Positions 5,683 to 15,104 of a DNA stretch of 15,357 bases are shown here, piece after piece. How positions within the stretch are numbered: the stretch's first letter is position 1; every line of letters begins with the position of its first letter. The stretch is from the NCBI GenBank assembly GCA_021794335.1, contig JAJYQZ010000338.1, positions 1-15,357 of the forward strand, given 5' to 3'. Under the pieces are notes generated by a model that saw only the letters and a list, made by a program, of their open reading frames with translations, was not told the origin of the DNA and ran no database searches. The position numbers and the translations under genes are program-made. Source of the stretch: a bacterium. Lineage in GTDB: Bacteria; SZUA-79; Acidulodesulfobacterales; Acidulodesulfobacteraceae.

Positions 5683-5719
5683 AAAAAAGGGGTCTGATTT
5701 CAAATCAGACCCCTTTTTT
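5683..5719. terminator. Perfect palindrome, copy 1 of gggg-tctgattt family; likely bidirectional terminator
   Basis: A 37-bp perfect palindrome: arm 5683-5700 (six A, gggg, tctgattt), single centre base C at 5701, and arm 5702-5719 (aaatcaga, cccc, six or more T). It lies 36 bp after the pilQ stop. In RNA form it gives a GC-based stem with a T-run of seven, matching an intrinsic terminator in both orientations. It is the same element as at 8281-8317 and 8584-8622; only the centre base and the length of the A/T ends differ. Confidence 0.8.
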
Positions 5720-5774: not shown

Positions 5775-6635
5775 ATGTTGATTGATGTTCAAAATTCAAA
5801 AGATAAAAGAGGAATAGCCATAGATAAAGTCGGCATAAAAAACCTCAGCTATCCGATTGCCGTTCTCGATAAAAAAAAATCCCTTCAGCATACCATAGCC
5901 CGTATAAATATGTATGTTGACCTTCCCCATTACTTTAAAGGTACTCATATGAGCCGCTTTCTCGAGGTTTTAAACGAGTACAGGGGGGAGATAAGCATTG
6001 TCAAATTTCCGGATATTTTAAGAAAAATTAAGCATGTTTTAAATGCTAATTCCGCTTCGGTTGAAATGGAATTCCCTTATTTTATCGAAAAAACCGCCCC
6101 CGTCAGCAGAAAAAAAAGCTTAATGGAGTATGTTTGTTATTATAACGGCACGATAAAAAATACGGCGGCGAAAGATATTATGGAAAAGGGGACAGATCTT
6201 TTTTTTTGCGAAGCAAAAAATAAATCTGTCCCCTTTTCCCCGCTTTCTGCCGACGAAGAAAGTGTTATTAAAATCGGCGTTAAGGTGCCTATTAATACCC
6301 TGTGTCCATGTTCTAAGGAAATATCGAAATACGGGGCGCATAACCAGAGGGGCGTCGTTTCGGTTTCCGTCGAATTTAGCAAATTGATATGGTTTGAAGA
6401 TATAATAGAAGATGTGGAATCATGCGCAAGTTCTCCGATATATTCGCTTTTAAAAAGGTCGGACGAAAGGTATCTGACGGAACATGCTTATGAAAATCCG
6501 AGGTTTGTCGAGGATGTGGTCAGGTGCGTGGCAGGAATTTTAAAAGAGAACAAAGATATTAAGTGGTATAAAGTCGAGGCCGAAAATTTTGAAAGCATAC
6601 ATAATCATAATGCTTATGCAATGATTGAGGGATAA
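5775..6635 (+). CDS. folE2: GTP cyclohydrolase FolE2 (type IB) with an in-frame palindromic insert
   Basis: FolE2 opens GTP to 7,8-dihydroneopterin triphosphate, the first step of folate synthesis, in the metal-dependent non-canonical (IB) family. Family marks are DVQNSKDKRGIAIDKVGIK at the N-terminus, DLPHYFKGTHMSRF, INTLCPCSKEISKYGAHNQR (C177 and H189 in the active-site/metal positions) and RSDERYLTEHAYENPRFVED (E231). These three residues keep the spacing I recall for the gonococcal enzyme (C147, H159, E201) with a constant offset of 30. The protein is 286 residues, against about 257 for many family members. The excess lies before the CPCSKEIS motif, where residues 136-155 are encoded by a long hairpin (6182-6239). 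No good Shine-Dalgarno precedes the ATG, so the start rests on the alignment of the N-terminus. Confidence 0.95.
   Translation: MLIDVQNSKDKRGIAIDKVGIKNLSYPIAVLDKKKSLQHTIARINMYVDLPHYFKGTHMSRFLEVLNEYRGEISIVKFPDILRKIKHVLNANSASVEMEFPYFIEKTAPVSRKKSLMEYVCYYNGTIKNTAAKDIMEKGTDLFFCEAKNKSVPFSPLSADEESVIKIGVKVPINTLCPCSKEISKYGAHNQRGVVSVSVEFSKLIWFEDIIEDVESCASSPIYSLLKRSDERYLTEHAYENPRFVEDVVRCVAGILKENKDIKWYKVEAENFESIHNHNAYAMIEG
6182..6239. repeat. Translated palindromic element inside folE2
   Basis: A 58-bp hairpin lies within the coding sequence. Its outer arms ggaaaaggggacagat (6182-6197) and atctgtccccttttcc (6224-6239) are perfectly complementary over 16 bp. An inner stem ttttttgc-gaa-gcaaaaaa (6202-6220) extends the fold nearly to the centre. 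It is read in frame as residues 136-155, including EKGTDLFF and KNKSVPFS. It resembles the aroK palindrome in structure (A-run, gggg, short mixed core, mirror), but its core is acagat rather than tctgattt, so it is a sister family. Confidence 0.85.
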
Positions 6636-6651: not shown

Positions 6652-6679
6652 GTCATTCCTGCTGAAGCGGGTTGGGACA
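6652..6679. repeat. Mosaic hairpin repeat (GCGGG family), folE2-aroC copy
   Basis: The left half gtcattcctgc pairs with the core of the right half gcgggttgggaca around a tgaa loop; one stem pair is a G-T wobble because of a C-to-T change. The 19 bases gctgaagcgggttgggaca (6661-6679) recur exactly at 15086-15104 and, inverted, at 12799-12817. It fills part of the 87-bp gap between folE2 and aroC. The stem has no T-run, so it is not an obvious terminator. Confidence 0.75.
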
Positions 6680-6722: not shown

Positions 6723-7913
6723 ATGTTGAGATTTTTGACGGCGGGCGAGTCTCACGGAAAGGGGCTTGTTACGATAATCGATAACTTTCCGGCGGGTGTG
6801 AAAATAGACGGGGATTTTATCGATGGAAAGTTAGCCTTACGGCAATCGGGCTACGGCAGGGGCGCAAGGCAGAAAATAGAAACCGATAAAATCGAATTTT
6901 TATCCGGCGTCAGGGGCGGATATACAACGGGTTCCCCAATATCCTTTTTTATAAAAAATAAGGACTACGAAAACTGGAAAGGAAGAATGGATGCCTATAA
7001 GCCCATTCCCGAAGAAACCAAAATCCATATTCCGAGACCAGGGCATGCAGATTTTGCCGGTTCGCTAAAATATGGTCTCGACGATATAAGAAATGTTCTT
7101 GAGCGTTCGAGCGCAAGAGAAACCGCCTCGAGGGTTGCGGTCGGGGTAATTTGCCAGATACTTTTAAAAAATTTCGGCATCGAGTTTGCTTCGGCGGTGC
7201 TTAGTATCGGCGGTGTCAATTCTGACACCTTTTTCTTCGACGCTATCGACCTTTTCGACAACGAAATTGTTAAAAATATTAACAATTCTGAACTTAGAAT
7301 GCCTTATCCCGATTTGGAAGGCAAGGCAAAAGCATTAATCGATAAGATGAAAACAGAGGGGGATACCGTGGGCGGTTTGATTGTCGCGCAGGTAAAAAAT
7401 CTTCCGATAGGTCTGGGCAGTTTTGCCCAGTGGGATGAAAAATTAGACGGGCATATTGCTATGTCTTTGATGAGTATTCAGGCAATTAAAAGCGTTGAGA
7501 TAGGTTTAGGGGTAAAGTCGGCTTTTATAAAGGGTTCCGAGTATCAGGATTCTATTTATTATAATGATAATCCCGGCAACAAAGGCAAAGTTAAAGGTTT
7601 TTATAGGAAGACCGACAATGCCGGCGGCATAGAGGGCGGAATGTCTAACGGCGGGATTATCAGCGTCAGATGCGCAATGAAGCCTATTCCGACGCTTATG
7701 AAGCCGTATCTTGATACGGTCGATTTAAAAACGGGCGAAGCCAAAAAGGCGTTTCTTGAAAGGTCTGATATTTGCGCCGTTCCCGCCGCTTCCGTCGTGG
7801 CGGAGGCCGCTTTGGCCTTTTCTATCTGCTATTTCTTCCTAAAAAAGTTCGGCGGAGACAGCCTGAACGAAATTAAAAGAAATTATGAAGGGTATGTAAA
7901 AAAATATAAATAA
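6723..7913 (+). CDS. aroC: Chorismate synthase AroC
   Basis: AroC converts 5-enolpyruvylshikimate-3-phosphate to chorismate with reduced FMN, the last shikimate-pathway step. At 396 residues it is at the upper end of the normal range. All family signatures are present: LTAGESHGKGL (residues 5-15), RQSGYGRGARQKIETD with SGVRGGYTTGSPISF, RPGHADFAGSLKYG followed by RNVLERSSARETASRVAVG, NGGIISVRCAMKPIPTL, and DICAVPAASVVAEAA near the end. The start ATG is preceded by ggcggg about nine bases upstream. It lies between folE2 and aroK; chorismate feeds p-aminobenzoate synthesis for folate as well as aromatic amino acids. Nothing in it looks broken or inserted. Confidence 0.97.
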   Translation: MLRFLTAGESHGKGLVTIIDNFPAGVKIDGDFIDGKLALRQSGYGRGARQKIETDKIEFLSGVRGGYTTGSPISFFIKNKDYENWKGRMDAYKPIPEETKIHIPRPGHADFAGSLKYGLDDIRNVLERSSARETASRVAVGVICQILLKNFGIEFASAVLSIGGVNSDTFFFDAIDLFDNEIVKNINNSELRMPYPDLEGKAKALIDKMKTEGDTVGGLIVAQVKNLPIGLGSFAQWDEKLDGHIAMSLMSIQAIKSVEIGLGVKSAFIKGSEYQDSIYYNDNPGNKGKVKGFYRKTDNAGGIEGGMSNGGIISVRCAMKPIPTLMKPYLDTVDLKTGEAKKAFLERSDICAVPAASVVAEAALAFSICYFFLKKFGGDSLNEIKRNYEGYVKKYK

Positions 7914-7929
7914 AATGCAAATAGAAAAA

Positions 7930-7958
7930 TTGACTTTTATATCTATATTGAGTAAACT
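7930..7958 (+). promoter_or_regulatory. Candidate sigma-70 promoter for the small membrane protein gene
   Basis: TTGACT (7930-7935) and TAAACT (7953-7958) are separated by 17 bp, five of six and four of six consensus matches. They lie 36 bp before the start codon of the next gene. In such AT-rich sequence chance matches are common, so this is only a candidate. Confidence 0.4.
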
Positions 7959-7993
7959 ACATTAGTATAAATATTGCTTTATGGAGAAATATT

Positions 7994-8257
7994 ATGAATA
8001 TAAACGCAAGTATAATCGATGTATTCAATGCGCTTAAAGATAAATTAGGCGAGAAGGAGGCAAAAACCGTAACCGAATACTTTGAGATTATGAATGAAAG
8101 CTGCAAAAAGGAAAGCCAAGAAAATATGTTAAAGACTTTTGCGACAAAAGATGATTTAAACAAAGCGGTATTAACGCTTATAAAATGGTTTATAGGTATT
8201 CAAATTGGATTTGTTGGAATTATAGGCTTATTATTAGAATTAATGATAAAGCGGTAG
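7994..8257 (+). CDS. Small coiled-coil protein with C-terminal membrane anchor, function unknown
   Basis: The 87-residue product is preceded by ggag seven bases before the ATG, which supports it as real. Residues 1-60 are charged and helical, including KDKLGEKEAKTVTEYF and FATKDDLNKAVL, and probably form a coiled coil. Residues about 64-84 (IKWFIGIQIGFVGIIGLLLEL) form one membrane helix, ended by a basic tail. The layout of an 'ATK-[ED]-DL' helix followed by a C-terminal membrane helix is common in small bacterial proteins of the DUF1640/CCDC90-like type, often found beside mobile or toxin-like genes, but I cannot assign it with confidence. It has its own promoter candidate and a palindromic terminator 23 bp after its stop, so it may be a single-gene unit set between aroC and aroK. 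Confidence 0.75.
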   Translation: MNINASIIDVFNALKDKLGEKEAKTVTEYFEIMNESCKKESQENMLKTFATKDDLNKAVLTLIKWFIGIQIGFVGIIGLLLELMIKR

Positions 8258-8280
8258 ATATTATTGTGTAATATATAAAG

Positions 8281-8317
8281 AAAAAAGGGGTCTGATTTAA
8301 AATCAGACCCCTTTTTT
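8281..8317. terminator. Perfect palindrome, copy 2 of gggg-tctgattt family, just upstream of aroK
   Basis: Arms 8281-8298 (six A, gggg, tctgattt) and 8300-8317 (aaatcaga, cccc, six T) surround the single centre base A at 8299; one more T follows. It lies 23 bp after the small membrane protein gene and 22 bp before the aroK ATG. It looks like an intrinsic terminator in either orientation. If it works as one, little room is left for an aroK promoter downstream of it. Confidence 0.75.
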
Positions 8318-8339
8318 TCTGAATGCGGGGCGTGAAATA

Positions 8340-8957
8340 ATGAAAACCAATATTGTGCTTATCGGATTTATGGGGGCCGGAAAAACGGAAGTCGGACGGC
8401 TTTTGGCTGAAAAAATGGGGTATAACTTTATTGACCTGGATTATATTGCGGAAAGCCGCGAGGGCATGACGATTAATGAAATATTTAAGCAAAAAGGCGA
8501 GGCTTATTTCAGGGACGCCGAAAATAAGATTTTAAAGGATTTCAAAAAAAACAAAAATAATATTTTAAGTTTCTTAAAAGAAGAAAAAAAGGGGTCTGAT
8601 TTTAAATCAGACCCCTTTTTTTTAAAATCCGGTAATTTAATTATAAACGGAGAGGATAAGTACTGGGTAATCTCCACGGGAGGGGGCATGCCGGTTTATA
8701 AAAACAATATGGAAATGCTAAAAAAATTAGGCTATGTTATATACCTTAAAGCCGACGGCAAAACGATATATCAAAGAATCAGGGCGGAAAAGAACCGTCC
8801 CGTATTGGGAGAAAGCGGTTTTAGCGAAAAGGATATTAAAAATAAACTTGACGAGCGGGAAAGATTTTATAAAAAAGCCGATATGATAATTTATACGGAT
8901 GGTTTATCGCCGCAAAGCGTTGCCGAGGAAATAGACATCTTTGTTTCAAATTTGTAA
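8340..8957 (+). CDS. aroK: Shikimate kinase AroK with an in-frame palindromic insert
   Basis: AroK phosphorylates shikimate at O3 using ATP. Visible motifs are the Walker A GFMGAGKT (residues 9-16), the shikimate-binding DLD at 32-34 and R58 (both at the E. coli AroK positions as I recall), the STGGG motif at 112-116, the lid RAEKNRPVL (148-156), and DERERFY near 171-177. The protein is 205 residues, while the family is about 170. The GGG motif is shifted by about 35 residues relative to E. coli (79-81), so the extra length is confined to residues about 69-108. Residues 82-95 of this insert are translated from a perfect palindrome (8584-8622) and read EKKGSDFKSDPFFL. The insert sits in a surface-loop position just before the glycine-rich motif, and catalytic residues on both sides are intact. 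Confidence 0.95.
   Translation: MKTNIVLIGFMGAGKTEVGRLLAEKMGYNFIDLDYIAESREGMTINEIFKQKGEAYFRDAENKILKDFKKNKNNILSFLKEEKKGSDFKSDPFFLKSGNLIINGEDKYWVISTGGGMPVYKNNMEMLKKLGYVIYLKADGKTIYQRIRAEKNRPVLGESGFSEKDIKNKLDERERFYKKADMIIYTDGLSPQSVAEEIDIFVSNL
8584..8622. repeat. Perfect palindrome, copy 3 of gggg-tctgattt family, inside aroK
   Basis: Arms 8584-8602 (seven A, gggg, tctgattt) and 8604-8622 (aaatcaga, cccc, seven T) flank centre base T at 8603. The element is open in the aroK frame and contributes KKGSDFKSDPFF. It is identical in core to copies 1 and 2, with copy 2 only about 300 bp upstream. Its GC stem and run of eight T also resemble an intrinsic terminator inside the coding region. Confidence 0.85.
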
Positions 8958-8984
8958 ATAAAATCCATTAGTTAACAAAAAAAT

Positions 8985-9011
8985 TAAAGTTTGTTTTTAA
9001 AAGGACGATAT
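8985..9011 (+). promoter_or_regulatory. Sigma-28 (FliA) promoter for flagellin
   Basis: TAAAGTTT (8985-8992) is an exact match to the sigma-28 -35 element. After exactly 11 bases comes GACGATAT (9004-9011), which matches six of eight positions of the -10 consensus GCCGATAA. It is the only such match I found in the window, and it precedes the flagellin gene, the classical late flagellar target. Transcription would start near 9018, giving a leader of about 190 nt. Confidence 0.85.
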
Positions 9012-9030
9012 ATAATCAAAGGCTATAAAA

Positions 9031-9062
9031 AAAGAAAGAGGGCGAGTTGCCTTCAATTCTTT
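9031..9062 (+). other. 5' stem-loop of the flagellin mRNA leader
   Basis: Close to the predicted transcript start the sequence AAAGAA (9031-9036) pairs with TTCTTT (9057-9062). Inside it, GAGGGC (9038-9043) pairs with GCCTTC (9049-9054) around a gagtt loop, with one G-T pair. Such a 5'-terminal hairpin could protect an abundant mRNA from decay (inference). Further downstream, an isolated perfect anti-SD match GGAGGTGA lies at 9089-9096 without a convincing gene behind it. Confidence 0.5.
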
Positions 9063-9161
9063 AAAATGTGAACTAATTAATAAAAAAGGGAGGTGAACGG
9101 GGTTAGTATTTTGACATATAGCCTTACCATTTTCATAATTCAATGTTAAATTAAACAAAAC

Positions 9162-10868: not shown

Positions 10869-10895
10869 GTCATTCCCGCGAAAGCGGGAATCCAG
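10869..10895. repeat. Mosaic hairpin repeat (GCGGG family), upstream of fliD
   Basis: Left half gtcattcccgc and right half gcgggaatccag surround a gaaa tetraloop; the stem ATTCCCGC/GCGGGAAT is 8 bp and perfect. The same 27 bases occur in inverse orientation at 12741-12767, beyond the other end of fliD. It lies 23 bp before the fliD start codon, just ahead of the gaaggtga Shine-Dalgarno. Confidence 0.85.
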
Positions 10896-12740: not shown

Positions 12741-12767
12741 CTGGATTCCCGCTTTCGCGGGAATGAC
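12741..12767. repeat. Mosaic hairpin repeat (GCGGG family), downstream of fliD, inverted copy
   Basis: Left half ctggattcccgc and right half gcgggaatgac surround a tttc loop. The 27 bases are the exact reverse complement of 10869-10895. It lies 67 bp after the fliD stop and could act in mRNA 3'-end protection. The rest of the 261-bp fliD-fliS gap holds a second repeat (12799-12827), a small hairpin AATAGAAA/TTTCTATT (12839-12865) and AT-rich sequence without a gene. Confidence 0.85.
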
Positions 12768-12798: not shown

Positions 12799-12827
12799 TG
12801 TCCCAACCCGCTTCAGCGGGAATCCAG
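12799..12827. repeat. Mosaic hairpin repeat (GCGGG family), hybrid copy
   Basis: Left half tgtcccaacccgc and right half gcgggaatccag surround a ttca loop. The left arm equals the inverted right arm of the copies at 6652 and 15083, and the right arm equals that of the copy at 10869. Together with the copy 31 bp upstream it makes an 87-bp unit (12741-12827) whose outer ends, ctggattcccgc and gcgggaatccag, are perfect inverted repeats. Confidence 0.8.
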
Positions 12828-13401: not shown

Positions 13402-15090
13402 GTGAATAACGATGAACTCACAACCGTTGTTTTATTTCAGTCAAGAAGGATCGGAGATTTTTTTCAAAGCCTGCCTTTAGTTAAAAACATACTATCGAAA
13501 TTCAACAATAAATGCCGTTTATTTATTGTCGTTAATAAAAATTTAAAGATATTGCAGCCTTTTTTTGAACCGAATATCGCTTTAATAGATTTAAACGACT
13601 TTTTTAAAGAATTTTACGGTATCGATTTAAATAAAAGCACATATCTAGATTTTTTAAATCTAACCAAAGATGCCGTTGTTTTTGACACAGCCATAAACCT
13701 TAATTACAATTTAACGAATTCTTTAATATTCAATATTATTCAGGCAGGGTCTAAATCAGGTTTTATAGCAAATCAAAAAGGGGATAAAAAGCAAAAAATA
13801 ATTTATCCGTTAAAGGCGGTAAGCTATTTTTTTAACTCTGTAAGGCATAGAAATCAAAACAGGATTAATATAGCGGATATTTTTTGCCTGTTTAACCCCG
13901 ATTTTTATTTAAGAAATAAAAATCATTCAAGCAAAGATAATAATAAAGGTTTTGACACGCTAAAAAAAATAAAAAAAAGAGACCATAGCTTTAAAAGGAT
14001 AATATGCGCCGTAGGCGCAAGTTCTCCGAAAAGGCAGTGGGACGATAATGATTTATCGGAACTCATCAAATTAATACATGGTAATCACCCTGATTTTGAA
14101 ATTATATTAGCTGGTTTAAAAGAGGAATCGGATTATGCAAAACAGATTGAAAATAGCCTTGATTTCCCTATTTTAAATCTTGTCGGCGGGACATCGCTGA
14201 TAGAGGTAATAGAACTTTTAAAAACAGGAGATATTATAATCTCGCCCGATACGGGGCTTCTTCAAATTGCTTCTTTTATCGGACTTAAAATAGCGGCTAT
14301 TTTTCTGGGAAATGCAAATGTATATGAAACCGGTCCATATCTGGAAGGCTCTTATGTAATCTCTCCGGCTATAGGTTGTTATCCCTGCCTTGAACATTTA
14401 AGGTGCGAATTTGATTATGAATGTAAAAAAAGAATAAAAGCAAAGGATGTTTTTAACCTTGTTGAGCTGATGCTGTTAAGGGACGGCGGCAGTGGGTTTA
14501 ATTATAATAGTAAAAAAAGGGGTAATATTTTAAGGGATTGCGAAGGAGATTTTAGGGAAGGGAGGTTTAACTTATATAAAATATCTAACGATATAACGCT
14601 TTCGCCTGTCCCCGTATTTAAATCAAAATTGGATAAAATAAGCCTTGCGTCGGAGATTTTTAAATTCGGATGGTTTAAAATCCTTTCGGATAATAAAATT
14701 AGCGCGGATTATGACGACATATTAAAATATTTAACAGATTATTTTATTTTGGATTTAGATATTGCCAAATCTATCAATGATGATATAATGTTTTTTAAAA
14801 ATATAATGGCGAACGCGTTGAAAACAAATGAAATTTCCGAAAATTTTATTTTGTTTTTAAAAAACATGGCAATAAATTATCCGCATTTGTCGCTCCCGCT
14901 TAATTACTTTATAAGCGAGATACGGTTCGGCATGCAGATCGGCGACAAAAAATATATAAAATCGTCTTTTGAGGGTATTGACCTCTTTTTAGAAAACGCG
15001 CATATTGTGTTAAATAAAATGGGTTCTCTGGATTATCGCTTCGCTCTCGGCTTTCAGCCTCGTGAAGTTTCAAAGAAACTTTCCCGCTGA
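13402..15090 (+). CDS. GT9 (heptosyltransferase-like) glycosyltransferase with long C-terminal extension, probably acting on flagellin
   Basis: Residues 1-355 follow the two-domain GT-B pattern of ADP-heptose:LPS heptosyltransferases: VVLFQSRRIGDFFQSLPLVK (9-28), AVGASSPKRQWDDNDLSELI (203-222), NLVGGTSLIEVIELL (259-273), IISPDTGLLQIASFIGLK (279-296), and a cysteine cluster C326, C329, C335, C341 near the end of the domain. Residues 356-562 are an extension I do not recognise. The gene lies between fliS and a MAF flagellin glycosyltransferase, which suggests a role in flagellin glycosylation rather than LPS core synthesis. It starts with GTG eight bases after fliS, without a clear Shine-Dalgarno. 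Its last residues and stop codon are supplied by hairpin repeats (15065-15104), so the C-terminus may have been reset by repeat insertion. Confidence 0.85.
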   Translation: MNNDELTTVVLFQSRRIGDFFQSLPLVKNILSKFNNKCRLFIVVNKNLKILQPFFEPNIALIDLNDFFKEFYGIDLNKSTYLDFLNLTKDAVVFDTAINLNYNLTNSLIFNIIQAGSKSGFIANQKGDKKQKIIYPLKAVSYFFNSVRHRNQNRINIADIFCLFNPDFYLRNKNHSSKDNNKGFDTLKKIKKRDHSFKRIICAVGASSPKRQWDDNDLSELIKLIHGNHPDFEIILAGLKEESDYAKQIENSLDFPILNLVGGTSLIEVIELLKTGDIIISPDTGLLQIASFIGLKIAAIFLGNANVYETGPYLEGSYVISPAIGCYPCLEHLRCEFDYECKKRIKAKDVFNLVELMLLRDGGSGFNYNSKKRGNILRDCEGDFREGRFNLYKISNDITLSPVPVFKSKLDKISLASEIFKFGWFKILSDNKISADYDDILKYLTDYFILDLDIAKSINDDIMFFKNIMANALKTNEISENFILFLKNMAINYPHLSLPLNYFISEIRFGMQIGDKKYIKSSFEGIDLFLENAHIVLNKMGSLDYRFALGFQPREVSKKLSR

Positions 15091-15104
15091 AGCGGGTTGG
15101 GACA
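15065..15104. repeat. Two tandem hairpins at the GT9 gene 3' end; second is a GCGGG-family copy
   Basis: AAGTTTC-aaa-GAAACTT (15065-15081, 7-bp stem, triloop) is followed at once by CCCGC-tgaa-GCGGG (15083-15096) with the family arm ttgggaca (15097-15104). The TGA stop of the GT9 gene (15088-15090) lies in the loop of the second hairpin. The first hairpin has the same build as the one after pilM (2567-2583). The left arm of the GCGGG copy departs from the other family arms outside ttcccgc. Confidence 0.75.

What the first reader, a model, noticed from the sequence alone, without database searches (positions are those of the whole stretch)
8584..8622. Perfect palindrome inserted in frame in shikimate kinase and translated
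A 39-bp perfect palindrome, almost identical to intergenic copies at 5683-5719 and 8281-8317, sits inside aroK and is read as KKGSDFKSDPFF. It lies within a ~35-residue excess placed between R58 and the glycine-rich STGGG motif, while all catalytic motifs are intact. This mirrors the Rickettsia palindromic elements (known to insert into genes and be translated) but the sequence is unrelated as far as I can tell. The element may be selected to keep an open frame on insertion.
Basis: partly seen in the sequence, partly recalled or inferred. Interest (0 to 1): 0.85.

Follow-up and report, generated by a model that had tools for sequence, protein, structure and literature searches.

The report
Self-mending palindromes translated inside genes
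In a group of uncultured bacteria, tiny mirror-image DNA elements sit inside genes, are read through as part of the proteins, and keep their two halves matched as they mutate, which suggests a DNA copying process that preserves them whatever it does to the protein.

Summary
Confirmed: a 39-bp perfect palindrome (8584-8622) lies in frame in aroK, with 37-bp sister copies at 5683-5719 and 8281-8317 (chance expectation 0). It belongs to a dispersed family in relatives: 113 distinct copies collected, 27 of them in frame inside longer ORFs such as AroK, AroC, FolE2 and DnaE. FolE2 in the same window holds a longer relative (6182-6239) and AroC a remnant (7212-7229). The surprise is how the arms evolve. 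Orthologous copies differ in sequence yet stay paired: across 24 copies in FolE2, AroC and AroK, 11 of 19 arm pairs have changed on both sides, 57 cells against 23.6 in shuffles, mostly by transversion and without excess G-U. Some arms run on into host sequence that matches only its own other side. Best reading: REP-like elements, probably derived from RAYT repeats, kept palindromic by hairpin template switching during replication. Mobility and mechanism are inferred. They work like Rickettsia palindromic elements but keep their arms matched. Selection on RNA hairpins, and replacement or re-insertion at the same sites, are not excluded.

The parts
8584..8622 (.). 39-bp perfect palindrome in frame in aroK, read as KKGSDFKSDPFF
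   Evidence: orthologous copies with covarying arms in G006 and G010
8340..8957 (+). aroK, shikimate kinase, 205 aa
   Evidence: Pfam SKI, E 2.4e-42; model mean pLDDT 89, residues 81-100 at 64-65
5683..5719 (.). intergenic palindrome copy, 36 nt after the secretin gene; terminator-like
   Evidence: differing palindromes at the same place in G010 and G009
8281..8317 (.). intergenic palindrome copy between a small ORF and aroK; terminator-like
6182..6239 (.). long-form palindromic element in frame in folE2 (EKGTDLFFCEAKNKSVPFS)
5775..6635 (+). folE2, type I GTP cyclohydrolase
   Evidence: Pfam GCHY-1, E 2.8e-93
7212..7229 (.). short palindrome in aroC, probable remnant of an element (GGTGTCA-attc-TGACACC)
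   Evidence: aligns with a fuller, imperfect copy in G010; also a terminator-like site
6723..7913 (+). aroC, chorismate synthase
   Evidence: Pfam Chorismate_synt, E 4.5e-107

Best explanation
The window carries a small dispersed palindromic element (short form about 35-53 bp, long form 58 bp in FolE2) that lies in intergenic spaces and in linker regions of genes, where it is simply translated if the frame allows. Shown by sequence: many copies in different surroundings; presence and absence between relatives; in-frame copies in conserved genes; arms that change together; arms that continue into host sequence repeated inverted on the other side. Inferred: (1) the core derives from AATAAA-GG[GT]G[AT]CAGA-TTTATT units found near RAYT-type (HuH, Y1) transposase genes, so founding copies were probably spread by that system; (2) once in place, the element folds into a hairpin during replication, the nascent strand switches template onto the opposite arm, and this corrects mismatches, turns one mutation into a matched pair, and sometimes lengthens the palindrome by copying host flank. 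The proteins tolerate it because it sits in flexible linkers. It persists by a copying bias rather than by benefit to the gene.
For: Open pattern with four free pairs: 58 hits in 15 of 61 genomes, reversed-pattern control 0; 219 of 232 free cells pair (shuffle mean 132, maximum 154), 47 hits perfect, in 14 versions. FolE2 site, 11 species: 93.3% of cells paired, 23 double-changed cells against 9.7 shuffled. FolE2+AroC+AroK, 24 copies: 90.6%, 11 of 19 pairs changed on both sides, 57 cells against 23.6; 40 double transversions, 15 double transitions, G-T 8 of 51 departures. Same AroK site and flanks, GGGG..CCCC in the window and G006, TGGG..CCCA in G010. FolE2 GTG/ACC in G010 and GCG/GCC in G006, two amino acids together. 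G007 glycosyltransferase: right flank an inverted copy of the shared left flank. Flank test: arms run 4.25 nt past the core against 1.16 when flanks are exchanged, 0 of 2000. RAYT-type loci with the unit. Insert in a low-confidence loop.
Against: The flank test by subclass is uneven: ACAGAT 2 of 2000 and TCAGA 31 of 2000, but TCTGA, the window's own type, 219 of 2000, and ACAGAA 596 and ACAGAC 988 of 2000. 67 of 113 copies extend less than 5 nt. Shuffles do not remove relatedness, and the number of pairs changed on both sides in FolE2 alone is reached by 27 of 500 shuffles. The window's FolE2 element is of another form than that of G010, whose FolE2 outside the linker is 97% identical, so replacement or re-insertion also happens. 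No closely matched empty site was found, so neither transposition nor a target footprint is shown. The exact palindrome was not seen beside an intact RAYT gene, and the unit was near Y1 genes in only 5 of 34 loci. G009, inside the window's FolE2 clade, lacks the FolE2 element.
Confidence: 0.55

Rival explanations
1. Selection on RNA: the palindromes are bidirectional intrinsic terminators or mRNA hairpins, and compensatory changes are kept because the RNA structure matters, inside genes perhaps as attenuators.
For: The three palindromes fold at -25 to -27 kcal/mol, z -5.9 to -7.6, and score as terminator-like. Of 80 copies outside ORFs, 64 lie within 80 nt of a gene 3' end, against 35% of random intergenic places.
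Against: 40 of 55 double Watson-Crick changes are transversions and G-T is no commoner than in the columns outside (8 of 51 against 22 of 127). Arms extend into host-specific sequence, which a terminator does not need. In the genes some paired changes alter two amino acids.
Confidence: 0.17
2. Replacement, not coupled mutation: the same linkers repeatedly receive different, already perfect versions of the element by new insertion or by conversion from other copies, which mimics covariation.
For: Elements cluster in folE2-aroC-aroK: 3 of 4 strict hits of G002, 3 of 10 of G020, 3 of 16 of G017. The window and G010 differ in form at the FolE2 site. G010's AroC copy has a left arm like its AroK copy and a different right arm.
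Against: At the AroK site the flanks up to the palindrome are nearly the same in window, G006 and G010 while arms covary. Half-changed states exist: one mismatch in G010 FolE2, split arms in G022 FolE2. Locus-specific extensions cannot come from another copy.
Confidence: 0.23
3. An assembly artefact of metagenome-assembled genomes.
For: The relatives are MAGs; P0008 looks mosaic and could be chimeric.
Against: The AroK insert occurs in separate protein clusters P0001-P0003 from several sources and in G006 and G010 with different arm letters; reversed-pattern controls are 0.
Confidence: 0.02

Closest known systems
Rickettsia palindromic elements (RPE)
   Same: Dispersed palindromes, inserted in frame in unrelated genes and read as part of the protein (review PMC10969869, passages)
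   Different: RPEs are about 150 bp there; these are about 35-58 bp. RPEs are said to lose repeat identity over time (discussion of PMC6649704); here orthologous arms stay matched. RPE sequences were not compared.
Coding palindromes in mitochondrial genes of Nematomorpha (PMC6649704)
   Same: Perfect inverted repeats inside translated genes; arm identity kept, with template switching proposed (abstract and discussion)
   Different: There both arms code for conserved protein regions and run to 284 bp; here one small dispersed family adds extra residues in linkers of bacterial genes.
REP / REPIN elements with RAYT (TnpA-REP) transposases
   Same: Small palindromes of similar size; a similar core lies near RAYT-type genes in this group
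   Different: REPs are preceded by a tetranucleotide, most often GTAG, and are mostly intergenic (PMC8266576, passages); GTAG is absent here apart from 2 of 110 copies, and 27 of 113 copies are in frame in genes.
Quasi-palindrome correction by template switching
   Same: Arms of inverted repeats are homogenised, also in coding genes and with amino-acid changes (PMC8604942 abstract; PMC8794818 abstract)
   Different: Those are scattered native repeats in yeast and RNA genes; here a dispersed element family would depend on the process.
Terminator-like dispersed repeats such as SPRITE of pneumococcus
   Same: Small dispersed hairpins with terminator-like shape (name from PMC10969869; PMC3049150 seen in listing only)
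   Different: Not compared by sequence; covarying in-gene copies are not something I saw reported for them.

Membership tests
Rickettsia palindromic elements | In-frame insertion into unrelated genes with translation | tested here: met
   27 of 113 copies in frame in ORFs of at least 140 aa; translation is inferred from open frames, no protein data
Rickettsia palindromic elements | Length about 150 bp | tested here: not met
   core 24-26 bp plus arm extension of 0-14 nt per side; long form in FolE2 58 bp
Rickettsia palindromic elements | Sequence similarity to a known RPE family | not tested
   no RPE sequences were fetched
REP / REPIN of RAYT systems | Conserved 5' tetranucleotide such as GTAG | tested here: not met
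   GTAG within 14 nt of the core in 2 of 110 copies; other tetranucleotides not sought
REP / REPIN of RAYT systems | Physical link to a RAYT gene | tested here: inconclusive
   related AATAAA-core-TTTATT units lie at 5 of 34 Y1 loci, four RAYT-type genes and one broken one; the palindrome itself was not seen there
REP / REPIN of RAYT systems | Mostly intergenic | tested here: met
   80 of 113 copies outside ORFs of at least 100 aa, though 27 are in frame inside genes
MITE of a DDE transposon | Target-site duplication at a filled versus empty site | not tested
   no filled/empty pair close enough was found
Template-switch maintained palindrome | Orthologous arms change together | tested here: met
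Template-switch maintained palindrome | Single events seen in replication or mutation data | not testable with these tools
   needs strain resequencing or a reporter
Known RNA family (Rfam 15) | Match at gathering score | tested here: not met
   0 matches in the window

The most novel reading that the evidence does not exclude
A class of minimal genomic parasites that need no enzyme of their own to persist once inserted: a hairpin-forming palindrome in an essential gene is repaired to perfection by polymerase template switching, grows by copying host flank, and rewrites two separate codons of the host protein at a time, so that a stretch of an essential protein evolves under a DNA-symmetry rule.
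Probability: 0.4. Interest if true: 0.85.

Novelty: new variant of a known kind. Interest (0 to 1): 0.72.

Why it matters
Template switching is usually inferred from isolated events. Here many copies of one small palindrome in comparable genes form a natural replicate experiment: whether palindromic DNA keeps itself palindromic, how fast, and at what cost to proteins could be measured. It also warns that covariation in a coding region, normally read as evidence of a functional RNA structure, can arise from a DNA copying process. And it links two curiosities: translated dispersed palindromes (Rickettsia) and arm-identical coding palindromes (Nematomorpha).

Tried and rejected
Integron reading of the repeat arrays: no integron integrase above the curated cut-off in 34 genomes, so not adopted. 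Loss of SbcCD as the reason palindromes survive: none of the 21 nearest genomes passes the SbcD cut-off, but six have weak matches and these are draft MAGs: inconclusive. A resemblance of GGGGTCTGA to Tn3 ends is from memory only; no Tn3 gene was sought. Rfam: no match. Plasmid relatives of 7900-9100: no match. The peptides in print: 0 papers. The FolE2 tree supports only 4 of 21 inner branches well, so changes were not counted on it. Event counts and a target footprint were therefore not obtained.

Papers: abstracts of PMC8794818 (with the start of its text), PMC6649704 and PMC8604942, the discussion of PMC6649704, passages of PMC10969869 and PMC8266576; others as search listings only. That I found no description of this family rests on those searches.

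Full report
What is there. The palindrome at 8584-8622 is perfect: two 19-nt arms around one free base, with 37-bp sister copies at 5683-5719 and 8281-8317. The core matches three times in the window and never in 200 shuffles. In aroK it is read as KKGSDFKSDPFF. The same window has a longer relative in frame in folE2 (6182-6239) and a short remnant in aroC (7212-7229). By Pfam the neighbourhood holds a secretin, FolE2, AroC, AroK and flagellar proteins.

AroK. Homologues P0001-P0003 (90-94% identical) carry the insert; P0004 and P0005 lack seven residues between its LKS repeats; P0006 and P0007 (84 and 83%) lack it. The nearest relative without it found, G009, has 200 residues against 205, so most of the long linker belongs to the clade. 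The predicted structure is confident (mean pLDDT 89), lowest at residues 81-100 (64-65), a flexible loop. P0002 reads KRGSDLKSDPLF: K to R and F to L together, which in DNA would be one arm pair changing from A-T to G-C; this is inferred from protein only.

The family. The exact core occurs in 11 stretches from 7 MAGs in the scanned collection, all seven among the relatives of G006. A wider pattern hits 13 of 34 genomes and an open pattern 15 of 61; reversed-pattern controls were 0. The GGGGACAGATTT form is in 16 of 291 genomes, three of them outside the group: G199 (8 copies), G203 (2), G217 (1). From the loci fetched, which are not all hits, I collected 113 distinct copies. 27 of 113 lie in frame in an ORF of at least 140 aa with at least 18 residues on each side; several are one site in related genomes, and an ORF is not proof of a gene. 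22, 4 and 1 use the three frames; 19 of 27 read [KQR]G[ST][DE][FL][KN]S[DV]P. Hosts include DnaE (Pfam), AroC, FolE2 and AroK and, judged from sequence only, an NtrC-like regulator and a membrane glycosyltransferase. Six more copies lie inside an ORF in a closed frame or near its end; of the 80 outside ORFs, 64 are within 80 nt of a gene 3' end, against 35% of 3000 random intergenic places, and 34 of 80 near a gene start against 33%. Intergenic copies therefore probably double as terminators.

Arms evolve together. In the open pattern four pairs are free: 219 of 232 cells pair (shuffle mean 132, maximum 154); 47 of 58 hits are perfect, in 14 versions, and 11 have one or two mismatches. These hits include related copies. 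At the FolE2 site in 11 species 93.3% of cells pair; 23 cells are changed on both sides against 9.7 in shuffles, while the count of 7 such pairs is reached by 27 of 500 shuffles. Over 24 copies in FolE2, AroC and AroK, decayed ones included, 90.6% pair, 11 of 19 pairs are changed on both sides (0 of 500 shuffles) and 57 cells against 23.6. For that set I used short-form copies only; the long forms of the window and G024 and the most decayed AroC and FolE2 copies (window AroC, G004) were left out because they do not align without gaps. The double changes are 40 transversions and 15 transitions. G-T makes up 8 of 51 departures, no more than in the columns outside (22 of 127), where Watson-Crick pairing is 41 of 168. 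Changes kept by RNA folding would be expected to pass largely through G-U. Cases: FolE2 GTG/ACC in G010, GCG/GCC in G006, two amino acids at once; AroK GGGG..CCCC in window and G006, TGGG..CCCA in G010 with nearly the same flanks; two compensated pairs at the NtrC-like site.

Arms reach into host DNA. Beyond the core, 46 of 113 copies stay paired for 5 nt or more, up to 14, often with letters found only at that place. Exchanging flanks between copies drops the mean from 4.25 to 1.16 nt (0 of 2000); by subclass ACAGAT 2, TCAGA 31, TCTGA 219, ACAGAA 596 and ACAGAC 988 of 2000, so the effect is clear in two subclasses, suggestive at best in the window's own A-rich one, and absent in two. In a membrane glycosyltransferase three genomes share the left sequence coding KAVE; in G007 the right flank is an inverted copy of it, coding STAF, while G005 and G017 have other right flanks matching their own left ones for 7 and 8 nt.

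Origin. Units AATAAA-GG[GT]G[AT]CAGA-TTTATT lie at 5 of 34 Y1 transposase loci looked at: RAYT-type genes in L030, L173, L175 and L177 and a broken one in L031; similar genes in L172, L185 and L187 had none in the DNA fetched. The unit occurs in 13 of 34 genomes. The palindrome half AAAGGGG[TA]C[TA]GATTT is close to it. Spread by this system is an inference.

Weighing. Artefact is unlikely. Pure RNA selection fits the intergenic copies but not the transversions, the paired amino-acid changes or the host-derived extensions. Replacement or conversion between copies surely contributes: the window's FolE2 element differs in form from that of G010, whose FolE2 without the linker is 97% identical, and G010's AroC copy looks hybrid. 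I hold template-switch upkeep of probably RAYT-derived palindromes as most likely. They work like Rickettsia palindromic elements but are not filed as such: the length is not met and sequences were not compared. The taxon is not established: relatives are MAGs titled only 'bacterium', and one homologue is labelled Deltaproteobacteria.

Noticed in passing
L241 (G022:C16) and L242 (G017:C6:1-3000): Same-orientation arrays of the AATAAA-GG[GT]G[AT]CAGA-TTTATT unit (nine full units, ten full units) with small genes between: DUF4258 and DUF2283 pairs, a HicB-like antitoxin and, in L241, the RAYT gene itself. They look like gene-cassette arrays without an integron integrase above cut-off.
   Followed up: partly
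window 7905-8338: A segment of roughly 430 bp with an 87-aa ORF (7994-8257, no Pfam match) and the palindrome at 8281 is absent between aroC and aroK in G010, G006 and G009.
   Followed up: partly
folE2-aroC-aroK in the window, G002:C13, G017:C105, G020:C2: Elements cluster in this operon far beyond their genome-wide density (3 of 4, 3 of 16 and 3 of 10 strict hits in the three genomes); unexplained.
   Followed up: partly
window 6655-6679, 10869-10895, 12741-12767, 12799-12827, 15081-15104: A second dispersed repeat family, ATTCCCGCTGAAGCGGGTTGGGACA and GTCATTCCCGCGAAAGCGGGAATCCAG, in both orientations in the same window.
   Followed up: no
P0008: An AroK that joins another species' flanking sequence with the window-type insert and neighbouring codons: recombinant or chimeric contig.
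   Followed up: no
L244-L246 (G199): A genome outside the group has 8 copies of GGGGACAGATTTNAAATCTGTCCCC; the 7 listed have the same centre base, and of 5 read one extends 6 nt and four 0-1 nt into flanks: perhaps a younger relative.
   Followed up: partly
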